From a virus, in IMG/VR virus record IMGVR_UViG_3300031775_001407, positions 1 through 22,211 of that record: a stretch of DNA of 22,211 nt; one strand, given 5' to 3'. Below, piece after piece: positions 316-20,107 of the stretch (the stretch's first letter is position 1; the number at the start of each line of letters is the position of its first letter). The position numbers were made by a program, and so were the translations under genes. A model generated the notes under the pieces. That model had not been told where the DNA came from, did not search any database, and saw only the letters and a program-made list of their open reading frames with translations.

Positions 316-930
316 ATGGCTAGTATAGCAGATCAATTCAAAGGACTCCCTATTGGGACACTCATCGCGGAACCATTGCTTGGAGCGGCAAAAGCACAGG
401 GTCAACTCGCTCACACGACAGAAAATTTTATAAAAGATATCGGGCTGCAAGACGACGGCAAAGGTAATCTTAGCGCACGTACCGTAGAATTTGATTATGA
501 TGCCCCAGTTGAATCTAAAGATGCAAAAGGAGCCTTAACGACAACAATCGAAAACCGTAAACTCAAAGTCCCCCTTCTCTCTATTATACAAACGCCTAAC
601 CTAGGTGTTAAAAAAGCCACCGTTGACTTCGACATGGAGGTTAAATCCAGCACTCAGGACACTAGCTCTGTTGATACTAAAACCGACCTTAGTGTCAAAT
701 ATGACAACTGGTGGTCTCCTGTTAAAGTAGATTTAACCGCTTCCGTATCCACGAAAAGCGAAAACATTCGCAAGACTGATAACTCCGCCAAATATACAGT
801 TCACGTAGAAGCGCGGGATGACGGGGCTCCAGAGGGGCTTATGAAAGTTCTTGACATTCTTGGAGCAGCTATTCAGCCTGTTCCTGCTGGCGGAGGAAGC
901 AACACTCCCGCCACGCCGCCTAGTAATTAA
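316..930 (+). CDS. DUF2589-type protein, first of a pair (204 aa)
   Basis: The opening MASIADQFKGLPIGTLIAEP, followed by LLGAAKAQGQLAHTTENFI, is typical of the DUF2589 family as I know it: an N-terminal helix with P-L-x-A-A-x-x-A-Q, then a beta-rich body. Shared landmarks are VPLLSI (85-90), a strand reading DFDMEV (104-109) and a C-terminal PEGLMKVLDIL (172-182). A low-complexity PVPAGGGSNTPATPPSN tail ends the protein. The function of the family is unknown. There is no signal peptide or membrane segment, so it is probably cytoplasmic or packaged. The stop overlaps the next start (TAATG at 928-932), so the two are likely co-translated. The next gene has the same strand and helix landmarks, indicating a paralogous pair. 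Confidence 0.75.
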   Translation: MASIADQFKGLPIGTLIAEPLLGAAKAQGQLAHTTENFIKDIGLQDDGKGNLSARTVEFDYDAPVESKDAKGALTTTIENRKLKVPLLSIIQTPNLGVKKATVDFDMEVKSSTQDTSSVDTKTDLSVKYDNWWSPVKVDLTASVSTKSENIRKTDNSAKYTVHVEARDDGAPEGLMKVLDILGAAIQPVPAGGGSNTPATPPSN

Positions 931-1406
931 TGGCTGACGATAAACTACCTTATTCAAAATCTGGATCATTTAGAGGTGCTCCGGCGCTAAAGACGTTCGA
1001 TCACCTTATCCAATGTCTCTATAACTCTGTAGTTTATGCTCAACGTTATGTGGAAACTGAGCATTTAAAGCGGGTTATAGGGACGTATTTTGACGACCAC
1101 GGACGTCCAGTAACCAAAAAGATAATCTTACCCACTACAGAGGGGGAACAGGAGGTGGAAATACCCATCATGACCCTTGCTGGGCACAACCACTTAAAGA
1201 TAGATAGTTTAGATATGGAGTTTGAAGTGGATTTGGGTCAATTTGAGAACTCAGATAACCATCAAAAAAGAAGAATGATAGCTATGATAGGGAGAAAAGA
1301 CCCAAAAAATACCCTCGCTAAAGTTAAGCTTACAATTAAAAACGGCGACACCCCTGAAGGGATAGCTCGAATAAACGATAAAATTGTAAAAACCATCCCT
1401 AGTTAA
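930..1406 (+). CDS. DUF2589-like partner protein, second of the pair (158 aa)
   Basis: This protein follows the same plan as its upstream neighbour: a helical N-terminus (DHLIQCLYNSVVYAQRYVE), then IPIMTL (78-83), HNHLKIDSLDMEFEVDL (87-102), and a closing strand-helix with PEGIARIND (142-150). The paired elements (P-x-x-x-L, then D-x-x-[FM]-E-V, then D-x-PEG-x-x-x-x-x-D) match the upstream protein in order and spacing. I recall bacterial DUF2589 proteins of this second sub-type with a HNxLxI-x(n)-EFEVDL signature, often next to a sub-type resembling the gene at 316. The start overlaps the previous stop by one base. Function unknown; a hetero-oligomer with its neighbour is my inference. Confidence 0.7.
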   Translation: MADDKLPYSKSGSFRGAPALKTFDHLIQCLYNSVVYAQRYVETEHLKRVIGTYFDDHGRPVTKKIILPTTEGEQEVEIPIMTLAGHNHLKIDSLDMEFEVDLGQFENSDNHQKRRMIAMIGRKDPKNTLAKVKLTIKNGDTPEGIARINDKIVKTIPS

Positions 1407-1418: not shown

Positions 1419-1655
1419 ATGGCCAGTGGTTATTTAAGATTAATGTTGGATTCAGCTCGTCGTTGCGCCTCGGCTACTCAAGACGCAGCAGAAGATGCTC
1501 GAAAAGCCTCGGAAGAAGCTAGGCACGAAGCTCAGGAGATTGATCAAATGGCTCAAGATGCAGCGTCTAAAGCTGTAGAAGCCAGTGAAAGAGTCAAAGT
1601 CCTTGAGGCTAAAGTGCTTAAACATGACAATATGGGCGATGAACCCAACACCTAA
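1419..1655 (+). CDS. small Ala/Glu-rich coiled-coil protein (78 aa)
   Basis: About residues 15-65 form one long amphipathic helix rich in Ala, Glu, Asp and Lys, with repeated A-x-x-A and E-x-x-x-A spacing, for example AEDARKASEEARHEAQEI. This is typical of a coiled coil or helical bundle. It has no signal peptide and no membrane segment. It lies directly after the two DUF2589-type genes and before the pyrophosphatase, whose preferred start overlaps it by 17 bases. It might be a small partner of the DUF2589-type pair or a helical virion protein; neither can be decided from sequence. ATG at 1419 is the only reasonable start and has no obvious Shine-Dalgarno. Confidence 0.6.
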   Translation: MASGYLRLMLDSARRCASATQDAAEDARKASEEARHEAQEIDQMAQDAASKAVEASERVKVLEAKVLKHDNMGDEPNT

Positions 1656-2214
1656 TCTCGTTAACGACATCCCAATTACTTGCGATGGGTTTGCCCACGT
1701 TAGCTGTATAGTAGAAATCCCGAAAGGGACAAATACCAAATACGAATACAACGAGGAATATAATATTTTTGAATTAAATAGATGCCTTGTATCATCTTTG
1801 CAGTATCCCATCAATTACGGCTTTATAAGCCAAACTTTCGCATTAGATAGGGACCCTCTAGACGTGCTTATTTTTAACCACGATCCTATAGACAGGGGAA
1901 GTTTGGTTAGGTGTAGAGTTTTGGGGGTGTTAGATTTTGTTGACAATGATGAAATAGATTATAAAGTCATAGCGGTTCCTCACTGGACGCCTAAAAGTCG
2001 CTACCCTCGCTTAAACTCTATTGAAGCGGAGCACCTTAAGATATTTAAACAGTTCTTTAGGATTTACAAAATAGATCGCTCTGACAGCGTGAAAGTAGGA
2101 GAATGGAAGAACGGCCGGGCTGCAAGCAAGGTAGTCTCCGAGGCTCACAATCGGTGGTCTTTAAAAAAATACGAAGAAACAAGAAAGGAAACGGAAAGAC
2201 ATGGGAATGTTTGA
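1639..2214 (+). CDS. ppa: inorganic pyrophosphatase, family I (soluble)
   Basis: This enzyme hydrolyses inorganic pyrophosphate to two phosphates in the cytoplasm, using Mg2+, and so pulls nucleic-acid synthesis forward. All the catalytic and metal-binding positions of E. coli PPase that I know have counterparts (from ATG 1639): E26, K34, E36, R48, Y56, Y60, the D70-x-D72-x-x-D75 signature in LDRDPLDVL, D102, D107, K109, and Y143-K144. The 191-aa length is normal for a bacterial family I enzyme. The frame also extends upstream to a GTG at 1585 and an ATG at 1624, but 1639 gives the family's usual N-terminal length and the smaller overlap with the coiled-coil gene. The stop overlaps the next gene by 14 bases. 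The residue set argues for an active enzyme. A pyrophosphatase inside a phage structural neighbourhood is uncommon. Confidence 0.93.
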   Translation: MNPTPNLVNDIPITCDGFAHVSCIVEIPKGTNTKYEYNEEYNIFELNRCLVSSLQYPINYGFISQTFALDRDPLDVLIFNHDPIDRGSLVRCRVLGVLDFVDNDEIDYKVIAVPHWTPKSRYPRLNSIEAEHLKIFKQFFRIYKIDRSDSVKVGEWKNGRAASKVVSEAHNRWSLKKYEETRKETERHGNV

Positions 2215-2748: not shown

Positions 2749-3432
2749 ATGAAAAAAATAATTGTATTCTTCTTTATAGTAACGGCCGTCGGCGGCCAAA
2801 ATGAATATAACTCAATTAACGAAAGAAACGCCTTTTCCCTAACCGAAGGAATTCTACCTCCCATCGACACAATCCTCGCGCCCCCAAAACCCTCAGCAAA
2901 ACTTTACTTAACCGGTATAATGAGATACCAAGGACTTACCAACGTCTTCCTCTACTCCAAAGATACTCCTAAAAGATTCCTCACCCTCAACCACCAACAA
3001 CGGAGTGACAGCGGGATTCAGCTTCTCAGCGTAAAGAAAGGAACAGTTGAAGTCCTTAATAACGGAGTGGTGGAAAAACTCTCCTTTGCTACTCATAAAA
3101 TGCCTACGACTATAGGCCCTGCCCCGGTCTTCAACCGGCCCACCGTGATAAAAAAGAGTGAGAAGGACGATAAAAATAAAAATAAAGAGAAAAAAAGTGC
3201 CCCTTCTTCTCCGCGACCTTCTGTTATTAAGGTTCCCTCTCGCCAACCCAAGGTAGACCCAAGTATAATTCAGAAGAGTCTGGAGTACTTGAGCAAAACA
3301 GAAGATAAAGAAAAAAGAGAATACCTCATCCAAAGACTGGAACTGCTTCAAAGTAGCCAAAACAATCTCGATAGAAAAATTGACACTAATGAAAGACGTC
3401 GCCAATACGATGAGCGTCGGCGCGACAAATGA
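2749..3432 (+). CDS. exported protein with a GspC/PilP-like HR domain and coiled-coil tail (227 aa)
   Basis: An N-terminal signal sequence or anchor (MKKIIVFFFIVTAVGG) is followed by NAFSL (27-31) and a Pro-rich linker. Then comes a small beta domain (about 52-113) with LTGI (54-57), a middle strand RFLTL, then GIQLLSV, KGTVEVLNNG and LSF. This is the layout of the GspC/PilP homology-region domain: N-x-F-x-L, P-rich linker, LxGI, GIxVLxV, GTVxVxN-G, LxF. I know such short proteins as numerous in Verrucomicrobiota, often near type II secretion or type IV pilus genes. Residues about 130-165 are a charged, Ser/Pro-rich linker; 165-227 form a very charged coiled coil ending in RRR-rich sequence. 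Exported or inner-membrane-anchored in the periplasm. The stop overlaps the next ATG (ATGA). Role in the phage unknown. Confidence 0.75.
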   Translation: MKKIIVFFFIVTAVGGQNEYNSINERNAFSLTEGILPPIDTILAPPKPSAKLYLTGIMRYQGLTNVFLYSKDTPKRFLTLNHQQRSDSGIQLLSVKKGTVEVLNNGVVEKLSFATHKMPTTIGPAPVFNRPTVIKKSEKDDKNKNKEKKSAPSSPRPSVIKVPSRQPKVDPSIIQKSLEYLSKTEDKEKREYLIQRLELLQSSQNNLDRKIDTNERRRQYDERRRDK

Positions 3433-3641
3433 ATATCCCCAAAGAAGGACTAATAGAGTTTGTTAATTTTGTTAATGAGTGTTGCGCTGTTATGGAGGAT
3501 AGTTATGTGGCTGAATGGCTCAATAAGCCTCATCCAGATTTGAACATGGACAGTCCTATGGATCTAGTTAATGATGAAGCCGGTAGAGAGAAACTTTATC
3601 GCCTCCTTTATTTTATTGATATAAACGAAGCTGACCTTTAA
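3429..3641 (+). CDS. orphan antitoxin-like protein, Xre/MbcA/ParS toxin-binding domain (70 aa)
   Basis: Residues about 15-65 match the C-terminal toxin-binding domain of Xre/MbcA/ParS antitoxins (also called DUF2384). The match includes W30-L31, P34-x-P36-x-L38, S42-P43-x-x-L46 and then E-x-G52-R-E followed by a Leu-rich helix (LYRLLYFID). In known systems this domain binds and inhibits RES-type toxins such as MbcT or ParT. The N-terminal helix-turn-helix of Xre antitoxins is absent and the protein is little more than the domain. There is no RES toxin upstream or downstream. The start overlaps the GspC-like gene by an ATGA; the stop shares TTAA with the opposing IPT/TIG gene. It could neutralise a host toxin, but it might also have been co-opted for something else. 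Confidence 0.7.
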   Translation: MNIPKEGLIEFVNFVNECCAVMEDSYVAEWLNKPHPDLNMDSPMDLVNDEAGREKLYRLLYFIDINEADL

Positions 3642-6600
3642 GACTTAGGGATACTGCTGACTAACATTGTGGTTCCGTCTGGGAACTTAGTTCTGGTGAC
3701 TAAAAAGATAATTCCACCTACATTTTCTTCCATAGTGTAATTTGTCGTGCTGCCTTGAGGTGGAGCAGGGGCCATTGCGCCTGTGGAGATGATATTGTAG
3801 TTTATTCCTTCTGTTCCTACTCTTACTCCAACATGTATAAGAGCAGGTTCACTATCACTGTTTCGTACCCCGGATGAAGTCATCCCAAGATGAGACGCGT
3901 AAGTACTTACCCCATCGCCTACCAGTTCGAGAAAATTCTCTCCTACAAACTCCAGATCATAAGGGAGAGCAACCTGAGCTTCATTCGAATTCCCCGACAC
4001 ATATTGTGAAGGCTCCCTATTTTGACCATTTATTAAATTGTACCCTGTCACCCTGTCTAAGTACTGCCCACTTAAATTAATAAGCCCTCCTTGCTGAACC
4101 GTGACGGGGTGAAATCCGGTGACACAAAAAGAGTCCCCTGTGATAGCAAGCGAGCCGCCGTTTCCTGTTCCATAAAAGCTTAACTTTTTATCGACTATAC
4201 TATAAGCATGCGAGGGAGCGCCCAGATCGCTATCTCCTAGTACGGCTCCTGTTATAGTGGGAGAAGGAAGCTGAAAATCAGCGTAAGAAGTGTTTAAGGT
4301 ATACTCGCTTGGAGTATAAAGAAGATCCCCGGTCCCTACAGAAGGCGCAGTTGAGATGTACGACTGAGTCCACCATGGATCAATTATAAAAGGGGTGCCT
4401 GTCTCTATGGCTTCCCTCGGAAACTCCACCTCTATCTTTGTATAAAAGGTATTAGCGACTCCCCCTATAGTAGCTGTTCCCGTGGAATAACTTTTTATAC
4501 CGAAAGGCTCTTCGTAACCGGGCGCGGGCGGTGCCATCACTACTCCGACATGGGGGTACACGGGATTTCTCCACCCACTAAATCCCACAATCTTCACACC
4601 ACTTCCACTTTCCGAAATGGATGAAACAGAGCCGATATTAGGGTCAAATGAATTAATACCTGTGATAGAGACGACGGTGTTAGGGGAAACTTGCCTATGC
4701 AAGTTCAACCCTTCCATGCCTGTGACGACCCCCACGGGGTAAAAAGGATTACTATCTATCGCATTGGACCTTCCTGTCACTCTTATATCCCCTTCTATTA
4801 TTCCTGTTGGAACTTGAGTTTCTAGGGCGTAGGCGCCATCACTTAAAAGGGTTGTTGAGTGAGCCGTCGTCTTAATGTATCCTCCAGTTGGAGAAACGAA
4901 TAGAAAGTCCATGCCACTAATGTTATAGCCCGTCATTTTCATCGTTTCGGCAGGAGCTAAATAATTATCAAAGCCTGAAACACTAATTAAATTGATCCCG
5001 GTAGGGTTACTGTCAGTGACCCTACCTAAAGAATCTAAAAGTTGGAACTTACCACTTGCCCCATTGATGGCATTGGGCACTTCTAACCCTAAAACAGAAT
5101 AATTCTGCTCAACAAAATTACTGAAATCTAAAGAACCAGACTGCCCAGAGAATCTTACACCTGTGACAAGGTTCATACGTGCTCCCGAAATAGTTAGCCG
5201 GTCTCCTTCCGCGAAGACCTGTTCGTAATCAATTATATTAGGAGCCCTAACTCCACTGTAATAACCGCTTATATCTGGCGCACTTGGGGTGACACTTAGG
5301 AATCCCGTCGACTCAACAAATCCGCCGCTAGTAGCTATTGATATGAGGTCGCTTTGAGTATTTGGTGGGATGGTAAAACGAAACCCAGTGGTGCCAGTTT
5401 GGGTGAAGTCGCTAACGGTAGAAAGACCCACCGACAAACCACTCTCCACAATATTTTCTAAATGGCCCGAAACCGTTATGACTTCTCCAAATTCTCCACT
5501 TAAGGGCTCAAACCCACTGATAAAAGGAGTACTTAATACGGTTATGTGAGAATCAGCGTCTGTATGCGGAGATGCACTCCTCCTGTTACGTGCTCTTAGT
5601 CGATATTCAATTCCTGTCTCGAAACTGGCGGGGTATTGGAATTTCAATACGTCGTGATTGGTTAAATCATACCCGCTCACAGGCAGGTTCGAGTAATACT
5701 TAAAGGTCGACGTAGGACCTGTACCTGTCCATAATTCTAGAGTAGTACCACTATATAGACACGTTCCCTCAAACAATCCAGTGACACCGGGCACGACTTC
5801 GATAGACGGGGTTACGGAAGAGACTGTAGGATTTCCGAATACAAAAAAGATATTTTCCCCAGTAACCGATCCATAAAAACCAGAGAGAACCATATCGAAA
5901 GATTCTCCGTAGCTACTCCCCAAACTAGCGGCGCTTCCTATCTCAAAAGCTAGCTCAAAACCGGGGGAAATCTCGGCTATCGACCCAGCATCATATGTCC
6001 CAATACCCACGTTTGAGTATGGGGTAAAATTTACGCCGGTTATTCCATAAAGGTCATTTCCCTTTATAGTTACGGTGTCCCCCTGTATACCGGAAGATGG
6101 TGTGATGCTTGTAATTTTAGGTAAACCTATAGTTGGCGTAAAATAAGACTCCGATGGATAGCTTTCGGGATAATTGTCAGAAAATAACGTGACTAACCCA
6201 GATGATACCTCAGGGCTTATCCCCACATTCCCTCCAGAGGTGGCAATAGGGATACCTGTAGGGATTAGACCGGAAACAAGAGTGTCGCTAATTAATTTAA
6301 ACTCACCCGTTTGACCCATTATTGAGCCGAGATAGTTACTCCCTGTTTTATACAAGATGCCCGTAGTAAAATTTTCTCCTGATACTAACAACAAGGTTCC
6401 CGTACTTCCTGCCGGTTTAGAAGCGTTAACCCCTACGGTTGAATATGCTGTTCCCGTAATTCGAGCCAATGGAGATAAAGGGAAATCGTCTATTGGGGAA
6501 ACCTGACCGCTCTGCAAAAGCAAATCAGCTTTACCACGAATATTCCCAGAAGGAACAATGGCTGTAACGGTATTAGGCGAAAGAGTTGTAGCGGCAATTA

Positions 6601-7207
6601 AATTATTATTTTGAGCAAAGCGAATCCCGGTAACCCCACTCAAGGAGAACCCTGTAATAAATAACGATTCTCCCGAAGCTAACTGATAAGAGTTAAGGCC
6701 TGAAATTGCAGGGATAGGAACGAATTCATCCACGCTAAGACCACTAGCCAACGTTTGATTACCATTTAACCCGGTCCGTAAGGAAGAAAAGACGGTGACC
6801 CCCCTATAGTCTGCGTCTTGAGGAACCACTGACTCGATAGTATTAGGGTCTACTAACTGAAAACTACTTTCTACATCTCCAAATTTTACATTAGTTATTT
6901 GATAAAAATTTTCTCCTGAAATTGTAAAGATATTACCAGCTGCCCCGCTTATCGAAGGAAGAGTTCCGACTAAAACCTGATCATCTGTTGTCAAAATAAT
7001 ATCCTGCACTCCTAATGAAAAGGTCCCATGAGAAGTTAAGGCTAAAATCTCTTGAGTGTAAGCGTCTAAAGGGACTGTGCCGGATATTCCTGTTGCGCCT
7101 ATGAGCTCAAGATCCGTAACGAAACTCTCTCCAAACTTAACGTCACGGATGAAGTTGAGGTTACTTCCGCTTATCGAGAATGGGGTATTTGGACTTAAAT
7201 ACGACAT
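3638..7207 (-). CDS. IPT/TIG repeat protein, probable tail fibre or adhesin (1189 aa)
   Basis: The protein consists of about ten divergent immunoglobulin-like IPT/TIG repeats. Each has a strand such as P-x-ISG, a turn, then [LIVF]-x-[IV]-[ST]-G-x-[NL]-[FL], often followed by [IV]-T-[GN]-V-x-F. Clear copies begin near residues 1, 83, 167, 248, 363, 460, 560, 665, 740 and 1033, with fainter ones between 828 and 1030. Good examples are FTISGENFYQITNVKFGD (94-111) and VTIKGNDLYGITGVNF (379-394). Gly, Ser and Thr are abundant and Cys is rare. There is no signal peptide or anchor, unlike bacterial surface proteins, so placement in the virion (fibre, decoration) is the likely reading. The ATG at 7207 is preceded by AAGGAT, three bases after the upstream stop. 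Receptor or polysaccharide binding is inferred. Confidence 0.75.
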   Translation of the reverse strand: MSYLSPNTPFSISGSNLNFIRDVKFGESFVTDLELIGATGISGTVPLDAYTQEILALTSHGTFSLGVQDIILTTDDQVLVGTLPSISGAAGNIFTISGENFYQITNVKFGDVESSFQLVDPNTIESVVPQDADYRGVTVFSSLRTGLNGNQTLASGLSVDEFVPIPAISGLNSYQLASGESLFITGFSLSGVTGIRFAQNNNLIAATTLSPNTVTAIVPSGNIRGKADLLLQSGQVSPIDDFPLSPLARITGTAYSTVGVNASKPAGSTGTLLLVSGENFTTGILYKTGSNYLGSIMGQTGEFKLISDTLVSGLIPTGIPIATSGGNVGISPEVSSGLVTLFSDNYPESYPSESYFTPTIGLPKITSITPSSGIQGDTVTIKGNDLYGITGVNFTPYSNVGIGTYDAGSIAEISPGFELAFEIGSAASLGSSYGESFDMVLSGFYGSVTGENIFFVFGNPTVSSVTPSIEVVPGVTGLFEGTCLYSGTTLELWTGTGPTSTFKYYSNLPVSGYDLTNHDVLKFQYPASFETGIEYRLRARNRRSASPHTDADSHITVLSTPFISGFEPLSGEFGEVITVSGHLENIVESGLSVGLSTVSDFTQTGTTGFRFTIPPNTQSDLISIATSGGFVESTGFLSVTPSAPDISGYYSGVRAPNIIDYEQVFAEGDRLTISGARMNLVTGVRFSGQSGSLDFSNFVEQNYSVLGLEVPNAINGASGKFQLLDSLGRVTDSNPTGINLISVSGFDNYLAPAETMKMTGYNISGMDFLFVSPTGGYIKTTAHSTTLLSDGAYALETQVPTGIIEGDIRVTGRSNAIDSNPFYPVGVVTGMEGLNLHRQVSPNTVVSITGINSFDPNIGSVSSISESGSGVKIVGFSGWRNPVYPHVGVVMAPPAPGYEEPFGIKSYSTGTATIGGVANTFYTKIEVEFPREAIETGTPFIIDPWWTQSYISTAPSVGTGDLLYTPSEYTLNTSYADFQLPSPTITGAVLGDSDLGAPSHAYSIVDKKLSFYGTGNGGSLAITGDSFCVTGFHPVTVQQGGLINLSGQYLDRVTGYNLINGQNREPSQYVSGNSNEAQVALPYDLEFVGENFLELVGDGVSTYASHLGMTSSGVRNSDSEPALIHVGVRVGTEGINYNIISTGAMAPAPPQGSTTNYTMEENVGGIIFLVTRTKFPDGTTMLVSSIPKS

Positions 7208-7210
7208 TTT

Positions 7211-8077
7211 TTATCCTTGGAACGTAGTGCTCCCCATTCCGACATTCCCTCCCGCTGAATTAAACAGGATCACCGGATTTACTATTTTTATTTGACTATC
7301 ATTTTGGATAACGTTAATGCTTTGCTTAATATAAGCTCCCGCAGCAGAAGCTAAATTGCGAGATTGCATAACTCCCGAACATGAAAAAACATCTAAATTG
7401 GTAAAGTCATTGACCGCTCCTCCTCTTAATTTAACTTCTATTTTAGCCTCACTTCCGTCAACGGGGAGATTCCCAGTCGGGTTATCTACTTCAAAATTCA
7501 TGCTTGTAGTTTTTTTACCAAAGCTAATACTACTAGGTTTAGTTTCCCCCATTAAATAAACAGGAGCTACTTCCGAACTATAATTATACCCCCCCGCAAT
7601 AAAATTGTTTATTATGTCTGTCTCAAAGTCTGAAGTTACCGCAATTCTGGAAGTGTTCAATACGGTAGCCGCTTGGGCTTGCTCCTCTGTGGGCGTAAAC
7701 GTTCCTTGGAGATCGTCAAAAAAAGCAATAGACACACTCGCTGTGACCGGGGAATTAGGCGAAAAGTCGACGTTATAGGAAGTCAAATATCCACTATCAA
7801 AATTCAACCCCCCAAAGTTTCCAGAGATGGTTTGGCTGGCGCTTTGAGGAATTTCCCCTTGCCCAGTGATAAAAGATTTAAAATAATCATTCCCCGTTAA
7901 AAAATAATTGAACTGCAGTGACCCCGCAATACCGTTAGACGCTGCATAAAAGTTAGTGTTTCTATCCCCTATTACATAATTAGCCTCAAGAGAAGCACTT
8001 AAAGAAAGAGAAGCATTAGAGGCTAGTATTTCTGTCCCATTGATTTTAAGAGTGGCGTTGTTTGCGGAATATAGCAC
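7211..8077 (-). CDS. virion-like beta-rich protein, paralogue C (288 aa)
   Basis: The third member of a tandem family of three. Landmarks are an N-terminal strand with INGT (12-15), YVIG (34-37), GSLQFNYFLTG (52-62), LTSYNVDF (98-105), and in the second half APVYLMGETKP (171-181). The last recurs as P-[ILV]-Y-x-[VM]-G-x-x-x-P in the two upstream paralogues. The arrangement suggests two related beta domains, as in tail-tube or tail-adaptor proteins, but I cannot assign the family firmly. The start is GTG: the only ATG nearby (8079) is out of frame, and GTG gives an N-terminus that lines up with the 9848 paralogue. The preceding stop is only one base away, so coupling is expected; no Shine-Dalgarno is clear. 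Confidence 0.65.
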   Translation of the reverse strand: MLYSANNATLKINGTEILASNASLSLSASLEANYVIGDRNTNFYAASNGIAGSLQFNYFLTGNDYFKSFITGQGEIPQSASQTISGNFGGLNFDSGYLTSYNVDFSPNSPVTASVSIAFFDDLQGTFTPTEEQAQAATVLNTSRIAVTSDFETDIINNFIAGGYNYSSEVAPVYLMGETKPSSISFGKKTTSMNFEVDNPTGNLPVDGSEAKIEVKLRGGAVNDFTNLDVFSCSGVMQSRNLASAAGAYIKQSINVIQNDSQIKIVNPVILFNSAGGNVGMGSTTFQG

Positions 8078-8078
8078 A

Positions 8079-8975
8079 TTAATAAGCTGCTGTTAAAGTT
8101 TTTTGGCTTCGGATTATATCGTCCAGCCCCGCCGTAGCTGATGTAGAAACCTGTACGCCACTTATCATCTTGACCTCCATTTGTTGAAGAGCGTTACCGT
8201 CCACACTTCTTAACTCTATTAAATAATCTGCGGGAACTCCTGTGTATGCCAGCCCCGAATTAAATATATCCTCCGCAACGTTTACAGATTCGGAAGCGTT
8301 GGTATAAAGAGTTAACTCTGGAAATTCTTGCCCTACCCTGTATATAGGATTGTGACTAAAAGAGATAGAATAGTCGGCAGAATAAACTACCCCTGCTTGA
8401 TTCCCCCCTCCTGCAGCTGGCGCGTTAATAGTGGTTTGAAGTCCCTCCACATTTATATATCTACCATGGGCAACTCCGGTTGCTACCGCGACCCCTCCGG
8501 GATTTGATAAGTTCACAGTGTCCCCGCTAAGCCGACCACTGATAGGAAGACCCTGATGACCATCCCCGTCTATACCTCCAAAAAAACTAAATGAAGCGCT
8601 AGAAGTAGATACGGAATTACTTGCCGTGTTAAAAGCATAAGAGTTTAAAAATCCAATACCGCTTACCCCCGCGCATTTGACAATAATACCGGAACCCGTA
8701 GACCCAATAGAATGCTTTAGACCACTTGCAAGATAGTTTATGACGTTACCTGCATGACCATGTGTAGAGCCTGTTATACTAGTGAGGAAATTAAAAGATA
8801 TATCACCCGCTCGTGGTCCTGCTGGCACGTGGCCTAGGCTCCCTTTATTTCCTATCACATAGAGAGGTTGCAGAGAATTATTGAAGTTTATACTACAATC
8901 CGACGCTAAAAGGGTTTCACTCACCCCCGCAACCGTGACTTCTACCGCCGCCTTATCATAAAATACCTGTGCCAT
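8079..8975 (-). CDS. virion-like beta-rich protein, paralogue B (298 aa)
   Basis: The middle member of the tandem family. It starts MAQVFYDKAAVEVTVAGVSE, followed by PLYVIG (37-42), AGDISFNFLT (57-65), FLNSYAF (109-115) and SASFSFFG (126-133). In the second half it has YSISFSHNPIYRVGQEFP (202-219), which repeats the YxxG/P layout of the first half. It is Gly, Ser and Ala rich with no signal peptide or membrane segment, as expected of a structural protein. A GTGTAA motif and AAAGGAT sit in the 30-base gap upstream, so it may be expressed more strongly than the first gene, as a major structural protein would be. Tail tube or tube-like shell protein is the likeliest role, by inference. Confidence 0.65.
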   Translation of the reverse strand: MAQVFYDKAAVEVTVAGVSETLLASDCSINFNNSLQPLYVIGNKGSLGHVPAGPRAGDISFNFLTSITGSTHGHAGNVINYLASGLKHSIGSTGSGIIVKCAGVSGIGFLNSYAFNTASNSVSTSSASFSFFGGIDGDGHQGLPISGRLSGDTVNLSNPGGVAVATGVAHGRYINVEGLQTTINAPAAGGGNQAGVVYSADYSISFSHNPIYRVGQEFPELTLYTNASESVNVAEDIFNSGLAYTGVPADYLIELRSVDGNALQQMEVKMISGVQVSTSATAGLDDIIRSQKTLTAAY

Positions 8976-8994
8976 ATCCTTTAGTAGTTAGTTA

Positions 8995-9000
8995 TTACAC
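8995..9000 (-). promoter_or_regulatory. GTGTAA motif upstream of paralogue B
   Basis: Read on the minus strand the gap is AGAGTGTAATAACTAAC, then ACTAAAGGAT and the ATG at 8975. It contains the extended motif GTGTAATAAC that also precedes the gene at 2749 (AGTGTAATAACCC). The gap between paralogues A and B is the only one in this minus-strand operon that is long enough to hold a promoter. No convincing minus-35 is visible. Confidence 0.35.
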
Positions 9001-9005
9001 TCTTT

Positions 9006-9848
9006 TCACCTCAAAATGAAAGATCTTAAGTTAAAATTAACCCCCGCATTGCCTTGGTCGCTAGCTTGGAAAGACTCCGAGGTTAAAAGCATATCATCAA
9101 AAGAGTACTCTAATAATTTAGTCTGAGAGTTGTTTTTATTCAAAGTTATTTTAGTATTCTTGAAAACTGTTTCTTCAGGAACAAACCTCATATTTTTAAT
9201 CTCGTAGTCATCTACATCTAATACGAAATTCACATTTACCTCCACAGGAGTGCCCGCTATCACTCCCGTCGGGACATCCAAGCCCACAGCATAGAGAGGA
9301 ACCCGAGGGGTAGCTATTTCAATACTGAAAGAAAGCATCCTATTAGTATTGAATTCACCCAAATTCACTTCCATTGAATTGTAACTGGGGATACTCAGGA
9401 CCGGCTCCGTTGGACTTCCCTGCTCCCAAGACGAAACGTAATTTCCTGTACCCATTTGTCCATAAATAACGGAGGTGGTTGATGTACTCGGTACCTCCCC
9501 GATACCGCATGACATAGTGTAGGTCTCCAAATAAGCTTCCGTAAAGTCGATTCTCTCACTTCCATACCTTACTATTCCACTAAAAGATAAATCTCCGGTA
9601 AAATTCAGTAGCGGGTCAGAGGCCGTTATGTCACTATAATTTTCTGGATAATAGTGAGTAAGAAGCGTATTCAGCTGCAAACTTGCCGTCTGGGGGCCTT
9701 GAGGAGCGTATTTTATGCTATTTATACCTAAATTAGAGAGCGGAGATCCAGCTACTGAGTCATAACTTAACTGAGCAGAGGTTAAACTCTGTATCCCCGT
9801 GCCGTTAATAGTAACGTTCTCCGCATTTCGCCTAATTCTTCCTAACAT
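9006..9848 (-). CDS. virion-like beta-rich protein, paralogue A (280 aa)
   Basis: The first gene of the minus-strand operon. It shares with its two downstream neighbours an N-terminal strand with INGT (14-17), an IKYAPQGPQTASLQLNTLLT stretch (45-64) in the place of their G-x-x-x-FN-x-L-T, and VPLYAVGLDVP (183-193) in the second half. It is beta-rich with no signal peptide or membrane segment. The C-terminus (VNFNLRSFILR) differs from the others. It is the most divergent of the three. The start ATG 9848 has AAGG close upstream. A tail tube, tail terminator or adhesin-base role is plausible for this set, but no single known family can be named from the sequence alone. Confidence 0.6.
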   Translation of the reverse strand: MLGRIRRNAENVTINGTGIQSLTSAQLSYDSVAGSPLSNLGINSIKYAPQGPQTASLQLNTLLTHYYPENYSDITASDPLLNFTGDLSFSGIVRYGSERIDFTEAYLETYTMSCGIGEVPSTSTTSVIYGQMGTGNYVSSWEQGSPTEPVLSIPSYNSMEVNLGEFNTNRMLSFSIEIATPRVPLYAVGLDVPTGVIAGTPVEVNVNFVLDVDDYEIKNMRFVPEETVFKNTKITLNKNNSQTKLLEYSFDDMLLTSESFQASDQGNAGVNFNLRSFILR

Positions 9849-12556: not shown

Positions 12557-13337
12557 AGTTACATTGCATGGAATTCTTGCTGAGCAAGTCGGTGAAAAAG
12601 AATGGAATCTTAAAGCGGCGAATGTGCGAGACGCGATAAGGGGGGTCCAGTCTAGTTGTAAAAAATTCTATACGTGCCTTCTAAATAATGACAAAAAGAA
12701 TATTAAATATCGCGTTCTAATCAATGAGCAAGATTTCCTTATTGAGGAAGGTAAAGATCCGAGCACTCCCGAAGGACTGAAATCTTCCCAACTTTGTTTA
12801 GAAAAAATCTCAAATTTGAAATCTATTGATATAGTGCCCGTCATAGAAGGCTCTGAGGATTGGTTTGATTGGTTCACTATCATCTTGGGGGTAGCCTTAA
12901 TTTGGATTGGTGCTCCAATGGCTATGGGAGCAGCTGGATGGGGTAGTATGTATGGGGCGGCAGTAGTAGCAGGTATAGGTCTTGTTGCTGCGGGGGTAGC
13001 AAACCTTCTGACTCCTGATCCAGAATTTGATGATTTTAGAGAGATAGAAGGAGGAGGGAGGCCTTCCTATACTTTTTCGGGACCTCAAAACGTAACTAAT
13101 GAAGGTGGGCCAGTTTTTGTAGGCTATGGAAGGCTCCTTGTAGGGAGCCAAGTAATACAAGCTTCTAACGATATTGCTGATGCTTCAGCCGGAGTTCCTT
13201 TTACAAAAAACCCTAATAAAGGTAACAATAATATCGTATGGGGCCGCACAGATTACGGCTTAAGATATAATATAAGAGGAACCGACCAAAGGCTCTATAA
13301 GAGGATTCTCCAAATCAACAAACCTTTTGCAACATGA
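12543..13337 (+). CDS. tail assembly protein I homologue (264 aa)
   Basis: The lambda gpI layout is present: an N-terminal beta-grasp-like part (VKVTLHGILAEQVG ... YRVLINEQDF, about 4-66), then IVPVIEGS, and a hydrophobic region of about 110-154 (FTIILGVALIWIGAPMAMG, AAVVAGIGLVAAGVANLL). It then has a C-terminal part with YTFSGPQNVTNEGGPVFVGYGRLLVGSQVI, the conserved gpI ending motif (YxFxGPxN, GxPVxxGYGRLxVGS). gpI is thought to help assemble the tail tip together with J, L and K, and is not found in the mature lambda tail. The hydrophobic segments could span a membrane or fold into the tip complex. Overlaps gpK by 14 bases and J by ATGA. Confidence 0.9.
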   Translation: MNRVKVTLHGILAEQVGEKEWNLKAANVRDAIRGVQSSCKKFYTCLLNNDKKNIKYRVLINEQDFLIEEGKDPSTPEGLKSSQLCLEKISNLKSIDIVPVIEGSEDWFDWFTIILGVALIWIGAPMAMGAAGWGSMYGAAVVAGIGLVAAGVANLLTPDPEFDDFREIEGGGRPSYTFSGPQNVTNEGGPVFVGYGRLLVGSQVIQASNDIADASAGVPFTKNPNKGNNNIVWGRTDYGLRYNIRGTDQRLYKRILQINKPFAT

Positions 13338-16300
13338 TAAGTGACATAGATATAATTATTGCGGCTATATGTTTCGTTTATGAAATACCTTTAATCTTAT
13401 TGGATAACGCCGTGGATGTGATATGGGACTCTCTGACCATGGGGAGCCCTGCTTTGTTGGCGAATTTTTTTGGAGGAGGGTCGGTTCCCACTAATAGATC
13501 GCCGGTTACAGACCAACGAGGAGTGGTGTCCGGCAAAATTTCCTCGGACGAAAGCAAGGGGCAATTAGTAGTAGTAGATTCTGATGCAGAAGTTGTAGAT
13601 TTAATAGGAGAAGGTTCTATAGAAGGCCTCGTCTCCGGGACATGGAGCTTCGAAGGAGCAAAGGGGGCCACTGGCTACACTACAACAACGCCTTGGATGG
13701 GGTCCAACGGGTTTACTCATTATATCGCGACGGGGACCCTCGTTGACTCAGACAGTGAGGAGGCCAAACAACAGCGCAAGGACTTGGGCTTCTTGCAGTC
13801 TATATACTGGAACAACACTCCTGTAGCAGATAGAAACGGATTCTATAATTTCTCCAATATCAACGTTGAATATACTAAGGGGCTACCAGAGGGCAATTTA
13901 GCAGCTTTAAATCCAGACCTCCCTTTTCAGGAATCGATGGATTTGACAGTTGAAAGACCTATTGGGGAAAGATTGTACGGCCTTTCCCTCCAAGGGGGCA
14001 GTATCCCCAGCGCCACAAAAGACAGTACACCATCCCAGAGCGAATTGGCGGAAAGCGCCGCTATAGATACTGTTGCTAAAACTTATTCAATAATCAACAA
14101 AGAATGCGGCAAAGTTCAATTACGCGTGAGAGTGTCTCAGTTGTTCGAACAAATAAGAGACGATGATGCCCCTAGGAGTTATGATGAAGACGATGACATC
14201 CCAGCAGTGGGGTATGGAGACATTAAAGCTCGCTCTATTAGATACAATATTTATTACCGCCCTTTATTTGACACTTACTCAGACACTACCGACGGTACAC
14301 CCCCAGAAATCCCTAAATGGGAATTTTACAAAACGGAAACTATACAAGGTCATGTAGATCAAGTATATGTGCGTTCTACAACTATAGACTTCCCTTCTGA
14401 ATATTTTGATCAACCCGGCTTCAATGGATGGGAAATTAAAATCATCAGGACAACCCCAGAGTCTCTTACTGCTTATTTAAAAAACCAAAGCTTTGTAGAT
14501 TCTATTGTAGAAATTTATGGCACTAAGCTGCGTTACCCTTATAGCAGCATGGTATACTCTAAATTTGATGCCGAATTTTTTAGCAGAATTCCTTCGCGCT
14601 CGTACGACACGAAGCTTTTAAAAGTTAAGATCCCTAACAATTACAACCCCATAAAGAAAACGTACGGCAGAAGTGATGCGCTAACCATACTAGACGCGGG
14701 ATGGGGGCTAGGAGGCGGTACAATTAACTGTAAGGTTACTACTAAACTGAAAGAAGATCAATTAGTCTACTTTCAAAACGGGGCCATTATGAAAGTTGGG
14801 ACCGAAACTCTCCCTACTGCTAGTACGTCTATACCCGCCGGGTCAACATGGGTAAGAGGAGGGTCACATGGAGCTCTCTATGGAAACTATCAATACCCCA
14901 CTCTTGGAGACCAAGCAGCGACTACCGAAGGATACTCCGGAGGAACTGATAGCGATAATTTTTGGGATGGAGGCTTTAAGCAGATAGATCAGTGGCCCGC
15001 AGGGATGGCGGTTCCTTTTCCGACCCCTGCTCTTGTGGAAAAAGAATGGACCGATAATCCGGCGTGGTGTTTTTATGATTTATTAACTAATCCTAGATAC
15101 GGTTTAGGAGACTTTTTGGAAGAATCCCAAGTGGATAAATGGGCCTTGTATGAAATTTCCCAATACTGTGATGTTATAGTTCCTGATGGAAATGGGGGGT
15201 TAGAGCCCCGTTTTACCATGAACCATATAATCACTTCGCGCGAAGAAGCTTACAAGGTTGTCAATGACCTCTCTTCTATTTTTCGGGGAATTGTCTACTA
15301 CTCTAATGGCCTCATACATGCAGTTCAAGACGCTTTCAAGCAACCCCTTTATCAATTTAACAATTCTAACGTGGTGGAGGGTAGTTTTAATTATTCCTCC
15401 TCCTCAAAGAAGTCTCGTCACAGCGTAGCAGTGGTAAGATATATAGATAAAACTAACCTATATCAACCCGCGGTAGAGTATGTAGAAGATCCAGAATCTA
15501 TAAAAAGATATGGCTTACGTCAGATAGAAACTACCGCGCTGGGGTGTACTAGTCGCGGTCAAGCTCGAAGATTTGGTCAATGGCTCCTAGCGAGCGAGTC
15601 TCAGGAGACCGAAAGTGTTTCATTTGACGTAGGTCAAGATGGAGCTTATTTGAAACCGGGCGATATAGTTCAAATATATGATCAATACCGCACCCCTTTG
15701 AAGTTTGGCGGAAGGACTAATATAGTTCAAGGAGTCGAATCTTCTCCGGCGGGACCGATAACCTACCCCGAGCCTGTAATAGTTGACGGCGAATATACTC
15801 TCGGCCCAGACCAAGGACCCGTAACGGGGAATAGTATTATAATTGATAATGCCGTAGCTTTTACCCCGGATACTATTTATAAGTTCTCGCTTTTAACTCC
15901 TACTTACAATTATGAGTCTACGGAAATTAGCGACCTAGCCTCCACGGATGAAGTAAGAAGGTCCCAAATTCAAAATTTATATTTCGATGGAAGCCATACC
16001 CAGACGATCACAGGATCTTATGGCGATAACCTATTACGGTCCGACTATGAAGAAGGAGGAAGCGGGATTGCTACTCAAATTTATTTCCATACCGGGCTTA
16101 TGCTCACAGATGGAACCCCTATAGGAACAGGGAATCAGTTGGATTTCGACAATTATGTTATTACTGGCTACACCAATGATTATGTCAAAGGGGACGTGGA
16201 TGGAACCACAGATGTCCCCGCTTCTTATTCGGGGGGATGCTTTTCTGGAGAAAATCTAGTGTGGAGCGCTGAGGTAAACAACCCCACGGGAAGTGAATAT

Positions 16301-19300
16301 ATTAGTGGGCATTTTGCTAACTATCGTATTATAAACGTTGCTGAGAGTGACCAAGATAATAGCTACGGAGTATCCGCTTTAGCCTATTCTACAGGAAAAT
16401 ATGACTACGTAGAGAATCGCTTAGCTTTTGAGGACGTGCAAGTAGATAAAAGACCGATTTGGCCTTATCTTCATTATAACAGAACTATTCCACAGTCGGG
16501 TATTCAAGACTGGGCAACTATAGAGGCCGGGCACCCTAATGATAATACCGCTGGGTTTCCTGAAGCTCGGTACGACGACTATTCAACGTTTGAAGTCACT
16601 TTCCCTCAAGCCTCCACCGCTCTCGAAGCTGGTATGGCAGCGGGCGTTAACACCCGGTATGACATACAGTCAGCAAGTAAATTTTCATTGCCCCAACGGA
16701 TGAATTATCACATTTACGTAATGGAGCAGGATACATTGGGGAATGGTTTCAATGATGCTAGTCTTACAAAGAACAGTTTTACTATCCCCATCAACGATGG
16801 CGGCGCTACTGAAAATGTAGGAGCCATCCTTCATGAAGTAACCGACGAGGAATATAATAAGAACTTTTTAATGACCGATTCGGATAACCTTCCCCCTGAG
16901 CGGCCGGTTCTTTATTACTTAGACGGGGACCCTACAAAAAGCGCCTCCCAAAAAGGCTTTGCTATTGGGGCGACAACAGTAGAAGATGGTAAGACACCCA
17001 AGGCGGTTCAGTTTTTCTTAGAAAAATTAATTACGAAAGACACTAATTATTGGTTTGCTATATTTGCATTCAATAATCGAACCCGTTCCCGTGAAGCTAT
17101 TGTCGGATTGATCCCTTCTACGACAGCGGTAGTCTCGAACGGTCTAATCTCCTCTAAAAGAATTAAATCTAATCAAACTTTTTCTCTCGTTAAAGGGCTT
17201 AATATAGATGGGTTGTCGACTCAAAGCCTGATTGGTCCCTCCACTACGCGAAATGCCTTAAATGTATTAAATTCCACTCAGCCTTCTTTTAACTGGGACC
17301 TTTCAAATATTTACGATGAAGATAACGTAGGTTTAATAGATTTTTATGACGATTACGGAAAGAGAATGGCTCTCTCAAGTACGCAGTTATACCGTATTAC
17401 TATAAGAAAATATAACAAACGCTTCGAAACTAATAGCGCGGTTAATGACTGGACCCCTTCTTCCGATATATATTTAGAAATAACGGGATATGAACAGCCA
17501 ATATTTAACGCTTCTTTTGTCTTCTTACGAGACTATAACAGTCCCCATATAGTTTCCAGTCTTCATGAGAATAGTGACGCCACCAAATATGACGCCCAAG
17601 GAAAAGCAGACGCTTCTCTCTCTCAAGAAGATACCGCATGGTATAAAGTAGATGAAAGTGGGGTTATATTCAAAAATAACCCTAATGCTTTCCCTCTAAG
17701 GCAGTTTGATGTTGTTGTAGAAGCTCATGACAGAGATGGGGCCACTAGCGCGGGCAACTTCGTTTGGAACGGAACAATTAACCCCGTGCTTACAGTGGGA
17801 GAGGAAACAACCAATACTTACCAAGAGATGAACGGGTATAACTTCTTGCCATGTTCTCTGGGAACACCTAGCGGTTTAGTGTTTGCTCAGTATGATGAAG
17901 ACCCTAAGGATAGGTTGGATGATTATTCCTTCTTGACGCAAGGCCAAGCCCATACGAGAGAATACCCTTACTTGGCTCATGCAGCGGTTTATACAAATGG
18001 AGAACTTCACCTAAATTTGGATCTCTCCCAAGATCTGGCAGGCAATACTATTTTAGATCCCGCACAACTAAAGAATAGTTTTCCTGATGTAAGAGGTTTG
18101 GTTTATTATTATAGCACGGGAGACAACTCAAGTATTGACAGTGAAGTAGAAGGATTGAACGGGAAGAGTCAAATAGTCTTCAACCCAAATAATAAGGCTC
18201 CCTTCTTTGACCTCCAGCCGGAAAACATAGCGAGCTCTTTTAATTTTGGGCGCCAAGGAAATGTTAAATATATAAAAAGCAATGGCGATTACGGCGACTA
18301 CGGAAAAAAGAATTCTCCAGCCGCGACTGAAGGTCAGCTGGCAGAAAATATAGCGGAGGAAGGGCAACCTCCGGTTTATCGCGACACAGGAAAAAATGTA
18401 TTAGTTTATAGATATTTTCATCTTTTTGATAGTTCTACCGATCCCCGTAATATAATCATTAAGTTCCCTAAAATTGCGGCAAGTAATGTACAAAATCTTT
18501 ATTTGACCGTGGCTCTTTTTGATAGTCTATCTTTCTTAGAACATTTTGATGAACGGGGATTTCCTAAAACTAAAGCGTTAGATTTAAACGGCGCTGCTTC
18601 CGAGACAAGTAAAACACCAGTTCCGGGCGTAATAATAAAACCTAACGGAGATCCCGAGGTTGTAGCTCAAACAGTTGAGACTATTCTTCTCGACGACACC
18701 CTGAATTTCTCTACCATTCCATATGACAGCCATGACGCTGCGGGCCAACCTGTTGACTGGAAGGATGAGCTTAGGAATGAAACAGTGAATCCCCCAGTAG
18801 GGTTCATGCTCCCTCCGGGATCCCCTATTTTCCTTAAAGAAAGGAGCTTACAGACCAAAGGTCAGTCGGCTCTAGCTTACAGGGCATGGTGGGATATAAC
18901 CCTAGATCCGGGAGAGCAATATTTTGAAATGGATTTTGATCAGCCACTAGTAACTACAGAGGGAGACACGACCCCATTCTACAGGGGGCCATATAAACTA
19001 AATCGAGCAGAGCTCCCTGAGAGCGAAGCTGCCATAGAGAAGATTTCTGGTCCTTTTGTGAAATATGCCGAGAGCGTCACGGCTGCCCTTAATAAAAATA
19101 AGTTTAAAGGAATATCCTCTATCGATTTTGAGGTGACACCCTCGAGTCTTCTTGAATATGGCACCCCGGGAGACCGAAGGCATTTTCCTTTCGAGGGATA
19201 CCTCACTATTAATTTTGAGACCGAGCAGGACCCGTCTAAATATACGGTGGATTTAGAATTCAAAGGAATGACGGCGGCCTCCTCCCAGCAACAAGTAGTA

Positions 19301-20107
19301 AAAATAACAGATGGCCCCAATGAAACCAATCAAAATTCTAATTTAAGGGATTACGTCCCTAATGATTACCCCCTTGGAGACTGCCGCCTTGAAGAAAAGT
19401 CTAAAAAATATATTAAACTCTTTCTCTCCCCCTTCTATATAGGCAGCGTCTCACAAGGGGGAATGTCTGCGGAAGAAAAGGTGCAGTCAGGTGAATGGTG
19501 GTGGTGGAGAAAGTGGTGGGTGGCGAGCCCCGGGAGGGTCGATTACGGCACATATAGGAATCAGTGGAAAAGTGGTGGTTATCCTGCAAATGGCGCACGA
19601 ACCAAGGTACAGTTAAGAGCGGGAGTTACCCTGAAGGCGCAGCCCTACGGAGCAAGGTACCTACAGTTTGACTCTAGGGTTACTGCTGGTGTTACTACGA
19701 ATGTGAGGTACTTTAGCACCTTCGGGTTTCAAGACTACCTGAAAAACGCCACAACCAACGAGATAATAAAAGGCTGGGTTCCTAACAATAAGACGTGGTA
19801 CCCCAACTTTAATGGAGGAGGAGACGACCTTAATAACAATGGAAGATTTTACATGATGACAAACCTAAACTCTGAGGGATCCCTTGATTACATTCAAGAA
19901 GGTAAGTGGTCCATTGATACTTGGGTTACGGGTATGGAGGGCTCGGTGGAAGCAGAGGCTCTTTCTAAACAGCAGCAAAAGGTAAATACTTTTATCGCCA
20001 ATGCTTACGGGAAATCCGGTTTGGCTAACTGGAACTTTTTAGGTCAACAAATCAAGATTAAAGGTGGTATATTGCAGACGGATACTTTTGACGTCGTACC
20101 CCTTTAA
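13334..20107 (+). CDS. central tail-tip / host-specificity protein J homologue (2257 aa)
   Basis: The lambda J type begins with a conserved N-terminal signature: VVDLIGEGSIEGLVSG near residues 86-101, followed by QSIYWNNTPV. The tip-attachment domain follows (about 570-785) with NPAWCFYDLLTNPRYGLG, then EAYKVVNDLSSIFRGIVYY, QARRFGQWLL and LKPGDIVQIYD. Residues 785-2257 are beta-rich and unassigned, including a fibronectin-like stretch near 1190-1260. They contain a Trp cluster at 2055-2062 (four Trp, Arg-Lys, two Trp). Lambda J is about half this length; the extra C-terminal region is where receptor recognition is expected. The start overlaps gpI by ATGA and gives an unusual hydrophobic first 25 residues; ATG 13439 is a possible internal start. 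This is the receptor-facing hub of the tail. Confidence 0.9.
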   Translation: MISDIDIIIAAICFVYEIPLILLDNAVDVIWDSLTMGSPALLANFFGGGSVPTNRSPVTDQRGVVSGKISSDESKGQLVVVDSDAEVVDLIGEGSIEGLVSGTWSFEGAKGATGYTTTTPWMGSNGFTHYIATGTLVDSDSEEAKQQRKDLGFLQSIYWNNTPVADRNGFYNFSNINVEYTKGLPEGNLAALNPDLPFQESMDLTVERPIGERLYGLSLQGGSIPSATKDSTPSQSELAESAAIDTVAKTYSIINKECGKVQLRVRVSQLFEQIRDDDAPRSYDEDDDIPAVGYGDIKARSIRYNIYYRPLFDTYSDTTDGTPPEIPKWEFYKTETIQGHVDQVYVRSTTIDFPSEYFDQPGFNGWEIKIIRTTPESLTAYLKNQSFVDSIVEIYGTKLRYPYSSMVYSKFDAEFFSRIPSRSYDTKLLKVKIPNNYNPIKKTYGRSDALTILDAGWGLGGGTINCKVTTKLKEDQLVYFQNGAIMKVGTETLPTASTSIPAGSTWVRGGSHGALYGNYQYPTLGDQAATTEGYSGGTDSDNFWDGGFKQIDQWPAGMAVPFPTPALVEKEWTDNPAWCFYDLLTNPRYGLGDFLEESQVDKWALYEISQYCDVIVPDGNGGLEPRFTMNHIITSREEAYKVVNDLSSIFRGIVYYSNGLIHAVQDAFKQPLYQFNNSNVVEGSFNYSSSSKKSRHSVAVVRYIDKTNLYQPAVEYVEDPESIKRYGLRQIETTALGCTSRGQARRFGQWLLASESQETESVSFDVGQDGAYLKPGDIVQIYDQYRTPLKFGGRTNIVQGVESSPAGPITYPEPVIVDGEYTLGPDQGPVTGNSIIIDNAVAFTPDTIYKFSLLTPTYNYESTEISDLASTDEVRRSQIQNLYFDGSHTQTITGSYGDNLLRSDYEEGGSGIATQIYFHTGLMLTDGTPIGTGNQLDFDNYVITGYTNDYVKGDVDGTTDVPASYSGGCFSGENLVWSAEVNNPTGSEYISGHFANYRIINVAESDQDNSYGVSALAYSTGKYDYVENRLAFEDVQVDKRPIWPYLHYNRTIPQSGIQDWATIEAGHPNDNTAGFPEARYDDYSTFEVTFPQASTALEAGMAAGVNTRYDIQSASKFSLPQRMNYHIYVMEQDTLGNGFNDASLTKNSFTIPINDGGATENVGAILHEVTDEEYNKNFLMTDSDNLPPERPVLYYLDGDPTKSASQKGFAIGATTVEDGKTPKAVQFFLEKLITKDTNYWFAIFAFNNRTRSREAIVGLIPSTTAVVSNGLISSKRIKSNQTFSLVKGLNIDGLSTQSLIGPSTTRNALNVLNSTQPSFNWDLSNIYDEDNVGLIDFYDDYGKRMALSSTQLYRITIRKYNKRFETNSAVNDWTPSSDIYLEITGYEQPIFNASFVFLRDYNSPHIVSSLHENSDATKYDAQGKADASLSQEDTAWYKVDESGVIFKNNPNAFPLRQFDVVVEAHDRDGATSAGNFVWNGTINPVLTVGEETTNTYQEMNGYNFLPCSLGTPSGLVFAQYDEDPKDRLDDYSFLTQGQAHTREYPYLAHAAVYTNGELHLNLDLSQDLAGNTILDPAQLKNSFPDVRGLVYYYSTGDNSSIDSEVEGLNGKSQIVFNPNNKAPFFDLQPENIASSFNFGRQGNVKYIKSNGDYGDYGKKNSPAATEGQLAENIAEEGQPPVYRDTGKNVLVYRYFHLFDSSTDPRNIIIKFPKIAASNVQNLYLTVALFDSLSFLEHFDERGFPKTKALDLNGAASETSKTPVPGVIIKPNGDPEVVAQTVETILLDDTLNFSTIPYDSHDAAGQPVDWKDELRNETVNPPVGFMLPPGSPIFLKERSLQTKGQSALAYRAWWDITLDPGEQYFEMDFDQPLVTTEGDTTPFYRGPYKLNRAELPESEAAIEKISGPFVKYAESVTAALNKNKFKGISSIDFEVTPSSLLEYGTPGDRRHFPFEGYLTINFETEQDPSKYTVDLEFKGMTAASSQQQVVKITDGPNETNQNSNLRDYVPNDYPLGDCRLEEKSKKYIKLFLSPFYIGSVSQGGMSAEEKVQSGEWWWWRKWWVASPGRVDYGTYRNQWKSGGYPANGARTKVQLRAGVTLKAQPYGARYLQFDSRVTAGVTTNVRYFSTFGFQDYLKNATTNEIIKGWVPNNKTWYPNFNGGGDDLNNNGRFYMMTNLNSEGSLDYIQEGKWSIDTWVTGMEGSVEAEALSKQQQKVNTFIANAYGKSGLANWNFLGQQIKIKGGILQTDTFDVVPL

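What the first reader, a model, noticed from the sequence alone, without database searches (positions are those of the whole stretch)
3429..3641. Orphan Xre/MbcA/ParS-type antitoxin domain without toxin
Seen: a 70-aa protein with W-L-x-x-P-x-P-x-L, SP-x-x-L and E-x-G motifs of the toxin-binding domain, no helix-turn-helix, and no RES-like gene on either side. Known: these domains inhibit NAD-consuming or ADP-ribosylating RES toxins. Inference: the phage may supply a minimal antitoxin to block a host toxin-antitoxin defence, similar to other phage antitoxin mimics.
Basis: partly seen in the sequence, partly recalled or inferred. Interest (0 to 1): 0.75.

Follow-up and report, generated by a model that had tools for sequence, protein, structure and literature searches.

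The report
Solitary RES-antitoxin domain in marine phages
A lineage of uncultured marine phages carries, as a conserved standard gene, just the toxin-gripping half of a bacterial antitoxin with no toxin beside it; the best guess is that it blocks an NAD-destroying bacterial toxin during infection, but the target has not been identified.

Summary
The 70-aa ORF (3429-3641, +) is a free-standing Xre/MbcA/ParS C-terminal toxin-binding domain. Pfam scores it just under threshold (22.4 v 24.5 bits), but eight viral relatives pass. A confident AlphaFold model (pLDDT 92.8) retrieves RES-antitoxin chains (MbcA, VPA0769, ParS, Xre, NatR) as its nine best PDB folds. It starts where the HTH ends in bacterial homologues and ends at the same place. 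About 70 uncultured marine contigs carry it. No RES was found in 50 records up to 200 kb, whereas all ten plasmid homologues examined have RES next door. It is under purifying selection and is core in its lineage (22 of 22 contigs picked by another gene). It was not found in bacterial genomes or cultured phages. The C-terminal plug has been rewritten: bacterial R-x-[E/D]-x-G-V-Y-x became F-I-[D/E]-x-x-E-A-D, with E-A-D invariant. I favour inhibition of a host RES-type NAD-consuming enzyme (about 0.5). The rewritten plug and slow, core-like evolution keep a different target open (about 0.3). No target was tested. New variant of a known kind.

The parts
3429..3641 (+). 70-aa stand-alone Xre/MbcA/ParS C-terminal (toxin-binding) domain protein
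3465..3485 (+). Helix 1 block N13-F-V-N16-E17-C18-C19; N13 and C19 kept in all compared relatives, E17 nearly so, first Cys not kept in the most divergent ones
3510..3608 (+). PF09722 match (residues 28-60): W-L-x-x-P-x-P-x-L and SPxxL core
3612..3638 (+). C-terminal tail F62-I-D-I-N-E67-A68-D69-L70, at the position of the active-site plug of RES antitoxins but with different residues; E-A-D invariant
   Evidence: plug role of this end in NatR and GndX from PMC11535050 and PMC12457610
2749..3432 (+). Upstream gene (227 aa, secretion-signal-like start, function unknown); its TGA overlaps the ATG of the antitoxin-like gene (ATGA), so probably translationally coupled
3638..7207 (-). Convergent downstream 1189-aa protein with a weak TIG-domain match, next to tail genes; not a toxin candidate

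Best explanation
The gene makes only the toxin-gripping half of a RES antitoxin. The phage makes it, without DNA-binding domain or toxin of its own, so that it can dock on a host RES-type NAD+ phosphorylase or ADP-ribosyltransferase and push its C-terminal tail (FIDxxEADL) into the NAD pocket, keeping host NAD available while the phage replicates. Shown here: the domain family, the predicted fold, the matching C-terminal end point, the lack of HTH, the lack of a recognisable phage RES partner, purifying selection, and core status in the lineage. Inferred: that the partner is a RES-type enzyme, that it is host-encoded, and that the tail plugs its active site.
For: Domain: 46 of 57 relatives hit PF09722 and 48 of 57 hit NF049845; eight exceed the Pfam cut-off, best 33.2 bits. 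Profile-profile comparison with ten RES-paired antitoxins: probability 95.5, E 1.4e-8. Profile search of the PDB: MbcA first, E 3.9e-4, residues 3-59. Fold: pLDDT 92.8 and the top nine PDB matches are all RES antitoxins, probability 0.98 or more and TM 0.65-0.81 on the query for the top eight. Best plasmid matches by tblastn are annotated RES antitoxins, and all ten inspected have a RES gene directly downstream. Domain borders coincide with those of full antitoxins at both ends. Published complex: the antitoxin's C-terminal helix enters the NAD cavity of NatT (PMC11535050). Precedent: phage ICP1 AdfB, a core-genome antitoxin mimic against DarT (PMC11481870). Selection: median dN/dS 0.10 over 21 unsaturated pairs; 22 of 22 contigs picked by their pyrophosphatase carry it.
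Against: The plug residues differ: bacterial R-x-[E/D]-x-G-V-[Y/F]-x against phage F-I-[D/E]-x-x-E-A-D. An arms-race protein facing varied toxins might be expected to diversify and to come and go, but this one is core and more conserved than the tail proteins. No host is known, so no host RES could be examined. One published RES system, NatRT, made no difference to susceptibility to more than 50 phages (PMC11535050), so RES systems as phage defence are not established by the papers read here.
Confidence: 0.5

Rival explanations
1. The RES-antitoxin domain has been re-purposed: it grips a different, slowly evolving partner (a phage enzyme or a conserved host enzyme) with its own tail chemistry, as a core step of infection unrelated to toxin-antitoxin systems.
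For: Plug replaced by an invariant E-A-D tail; N-x-x-N-[E/D]-x-C helix pattern conserved in phages and absent in the bacterial antitoxins compared; core gene under strong constraint, more conserved than tail genes; no NAPRT-family genes in the records to suggest an NAD conflict.
Against: All detectable non-phage relatives are RES antitoxins. No neighbouring gene is shared by all phage clades, so no phage partner stands out.
Confidence: 0.3
2. Two-gene antitoxin or unrecognised cognate toxin: the phage carries a RES/ART-like toxin too divergent to recognise, or a separate HTH partner, elsewhere in its genome.
For: In L077 an HTH-like protein follows the gene at once, and similar proteins lie within about 1.1 kb downstream in L070, L071 and L075. 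The records are fragments or of unknown completeness.
Against: No PF08808 match in 50 records and none with a RES profile in every phage locus fetched, while that profile recovers the ten plasmid genes it was built from. The HTH neighbour is absent next to the gene in the other clades. The ART search was uninformative because its controls did not ring.
Confidence: 0.12
3. Relic: leftover antitoxin domain of a captured toxin-antitoxin locus, without present function.
For: Only half of a known antitoxin remains, without its toxin.
Against: Intact in about 70 contigs, median dN/dS 0.10, 22 of 22 presence, overlap with varied upstream genes.
Confidence: 0.03

Closest known systems
MbcA (Rv1990c) of MbcTA, and ParS, Xre, VPA0769, NatR: C-terminal domains of RES antitoxins (PF09722, NF049845)
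   Same: Predicted fold, sequence profile, W-L-x-x-P core, and length from the first helix of the domain to the C-terminus
   Different: No HTH, no RES gene next door, plug residues replaced by F-I-[D/E]-x-x-E-A-D
Phage antitoxin mimics: ICP1 AdfB against DarT, T4 Dmd, phage TE pseudo-ToxI (PMC11481870)
   Same: Small phage product without its own toxin, proposed to neutralise a host toxin; AdfB is also core in its phage
   Different: Different families and targets; those were tested by experiment, this one was not
Small phage proteins with this fold in BFVD, e.g. A0A6J7XBF0 (73 aa, uncultured Caudovirales phage, named Xre/MbcA/ParS-like)
   Same: Short domain of the same predicted fold in a phage
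   Different: Only 11-21% identity in the alignments; context and function unknown

Membership tests
Xre/MbcA/ParS C-terminal domain (PF09722) | Profile score over the curated cut-off | tested here: inconclusive
   Window protein 22.4 v 24.5 bits; eight relatives pass, 24.5-33.2 bits
Xre/MbcA/ParS C-terminal domain (PF09722) | Helical toxin-binding fold of MbcA/ParS/Xre | tested here: met
   Nine best PDB folds are RES antitoxins; predicted model, pLDDT 92.8
RES/Xre type II antitoxin | N-terminal HTH DNA-binding domain (autoregulation) | tested here: not met
   Protein begins at the toxin-binding domain; no room upstream
RES/Xre type II antitoxin | Paired with an adjacent RES toxin gene | tested here: not met
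   0 of 50 records, none by the RES profile; 10 of 10 plasmid homologues paired
RES/Xre type II antitoxin | Conserved C-terminal plug, R-x-[E/D]-x-G-V-[Y/F]-x in most proteobacterial members compared | tested here: not met
   F-I-[D/E]-x-x-E-A-D instead; the actinobacterial members and one proteobacterial member also deviate, so this is not strictly defining
RES/Xre type II antitoxin | Binds and inhibits a RES enzyme | not testable with these tools
   No complex prediction or experiment available
Phage antitoxin mimic | Toxin-less phage gene related to an antitoxin | tested here: met
Phage antitoxin mimic | Rescues phage or cells from the host toxin | not testable with these tools
   Needs experiment

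The most novel reading that the evidence does not exclude
A core phage protein built from the RES-antitoxin domain whose rewritten E-A-D tail plugs an NAD-binding enzyme other than RES toxins, making the domain a more general phage inhibitor of NAD-using enzymes.
Probability: 0.2. Interest if true: 0.8.

Novelty: new variant of a known kind. Interest (0 to 1): 0.55.

Why it matters
If it inhibits a RES enzyme, it would be direct evidence that RES toxins act against phages, a point left open (or doubted, for NatRT) in the papers read here, and a minimal HTH-free inhibitor of NAD phosphorylases. If its target is something else, it shows a toxin-antitoxin domain re-used as a fixed phage tool, and the invariant tail would lead to the target.

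Tried and rejected
RES partner in the phage: rejected as far as the fragments allow. Relic: rejected by selection and presence. Structural tail protein because of the neighbouring tail genes: rejected, as the context differs in other clades (PfkB kinase, cupin, oxygenase, small unknown genes). Host-borne gene: no match in GTDB contigs with two scans. Cultured phages: no significant match; a bacterial antitoxin and its RES toxin also find nothing convincing there. NAD salvage by NAPRT-family enzymes: none in 50 records. ART family: uninformative, controls silent. PHROGs and PADLOC: no match worth having. First AlphaFold run with 13 sequences was weak (pLDDT 70.9) and was replaced by the 57-sequence run. 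Scanning with the single upstream protein, and with the single downstream protein, gave none and four relatives; the pyrophosphatase was used as anchor instead. Promoter and terminator scans were near chance. Key structure papers on MbcTA, ParST and Xre-RES were not held.

Full report
WHAT WAS CHECKED. The ORF 3429-3641 on the + strand encodes 70 residues: MNIPKEGLIEFVNFVNECCAVMEDSYVAEWLNKPHPDLNMDSPMDLVNDEAGREKLYRLLYFIDINEADL. Pfam returns one family only, PF09722 Xre_MbcA_ParS_C, at 22.4 bits, just under its cut-off of 24.5. A profile of ten bacterial antitoxins that sit beside RES genes finds this ORF in the window at E 6.5e-8, and 20,000 shuffles of its residues never score above 15.4 bits against 27.3 for the real one.

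RELATIVES. Four scans of IMG/VR with this family bring in about 70 contigs, up to 200 kb long. In an alignment of 57 distinct members, 46 hit PF09722 and 48 hit NCBIfam NF049845, type II RES/Xre antitoxin. Eight of the 50 records searched hold a member over the Pfam cut-off, best 33.2 bits. No relative was found in GTDB genome contigs with two scans, nor a significant one in cultured phages. These genome scans rely on short conserved peptides, so distant relatives could be missed.

FOLD. With 57 sequences AlphaFold gives mean pLDDT 92.8 and pTM 0.78, with four helices. The nine best matches in the PDB are all RES antitoxin chains: MbcA, VPA0769, ParS, Xre and NatR, with TM-scores on the query of 0.65-0.81 for the first eight. 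The E-values are modest (0.02 and above), which I attribute to the small size of the domain, but the unanimity is telling. Sequence profiles agree: MbcA at E 3.9e-4 in the PDB, and profile-profile E 1.4e-8 against the ten plasmid antitoxins.

ANATOMY. Aligned with full-length antitoxins, the phage protein starts just after their HTH and ends at about the same C-terminal position. It is therefore the toxin-binding half alone. In the NatR-NatT crystal structure the C-terminal helix of the antitoxin enters the NAD cavity of the toxin (PMC11535050), and the same is predicted for GndX (PMC12457610). In most proteobacterial antitoxins of this set that end reads R-x-[E/D]-x-G-V-[Y/F]-x. In the phages it reads F-I-[D/E]-x-x-E-A-D, and E-A-D is invariant even in the most divergent members. 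A helix-1 pattern N-x-x-N-[E/D]-x-C is also special to the phages. The acidic tail could sit against the arginines of an NAD pocket; this is inference.

NO TOXIN, NO HTH. PF08808 (RES) has no match in 50 related records, with control genomes ringing. A RES profile built from the ten plasmid partners finds nothing in the phage loci, while it recovers all ten plasmid genes, from which it was built. By contrast all ten plasmid homologues examined have RES directly downstream. The phage records are fragments or of unknown completeness, so absence is strong but not absolute.

SELECTION AND DISTRIBUTION. Median dN/dS is 0.10 over the 21 pairs not saturated at synonymous sites; pairs with the window's own copy were saturated. 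The protein is more conserved between the same phages than the tail proteins beside it (mean identity 0.71 against 0.45-0.57), about as conserved as its upstream neighbour, and less than the pyrophosphatase. To test core status without picking by the gene itself, contigs were collected by their pyrophosphatase: all 22 whose pyrophosphatase is at least 79% identical to the query carry the gene within the flank fetched, and none of the 58 with a more distant pyrophosphatase does within the flank held. Twenty-one of the 22 were already known carriers, and the alignment used as query came from carriers; the remaining one yielded a new divergent member. Carrying it is thus the rule in this lineage.

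CONTEXT. The gene usually overlaps the gene upstream (26 of 68 loci by exactly 4 bases), but that gene differs between clades: a secreted-looking protein, a 2OG-Fe(II) oxygenase, a PfkB kinase or small unknowns. The tail genes downstream in this window are therefore incidental. The 170-kb relative carries terminase, DNA polymerase, UvsX, RIIA and ribonucleotide reductase genes, consistent with a lytic phage (inference). Several relatives encode prepilin-like proteins near the gene; their long forms resemble proteins common in Verrucomicrobiota and Planctomycetota (own knowledge), which suggests, without proving, such hosts.

MECHANISM. The most economical reading is a phage inhibitor of a host RES-type NAD-consuming enzyme (confidence 0.5). 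Shown: family, fold, borders, lack of HTH and RES, constraint, core status. Not shown: any partner. The rewritten plug and slow evolution are what a changed or fixed partner would produce, so the re-purposed domain stays a serious rival (0.3). An unrecognised phage partner keeps 0.12 and a relic 0.03.

NOVELTY. The domain is known, and phage proteins of this fold already sit unnamed or auto-named in databases. The searches of the open-access library found no description of such a protein's function in phages. Phage antitoxin mimics as a kind are known. Hence: new variant of a known kind.

Noticed in passing
window 1585-2214 (+): Inorganic pyrophosphatase gene (PF00719, E 1.5e-43), highly conserved in this phage lineage (88% mean column identity in nine relatives) and useful as its marker.
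   Followed up: partly
window 316-930 and 930-1406 (+): Two adjacent genes both matching DUF2589 (PF11655); function unknown.
   Followed up: no
L038:4933-6884, L052:6067-7047, L003:5675-5950, L020:9792-12322: Related phages encode one to several prepilin-like proteins (TIGR02532 over its cut-off) near the antitoxin-like gene; long forms look like those of Verrucomicrobiota/Planctomycetota. A phage carrying pseudopilin genes is odd and hints at the host.
   Followed up: partly
window 2749-3432 (+): 227-aa protein with signal-peptide-like start and a highly charged C-terminal half, conserved upstream neighbour in 24 of 68 loci, no family match of note.
   Followed up: partly
L077:8219-8563, L070:2208-2549, L071:4992-5333, L075:5285-5629: 114-aa family with a weak HTH match (HTH_31) just downstream of, or near, the antitoxin-like gene in four phages; could be a split DNA-binding partner or coincidence.
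   Followed up: partly
window 3638-9848 (-): 1189-aa protein with a weak TIG-domain match, then three related ~290-aa proteins in tandem on the minus strand beside a plus-strand tail module.
   Followed up: no
window 13334-20107 (+): 2257-aa protein related to tail-tip protein J over only about a quarter of its length (best cultured match 37.5% identity).
   Followed up: no
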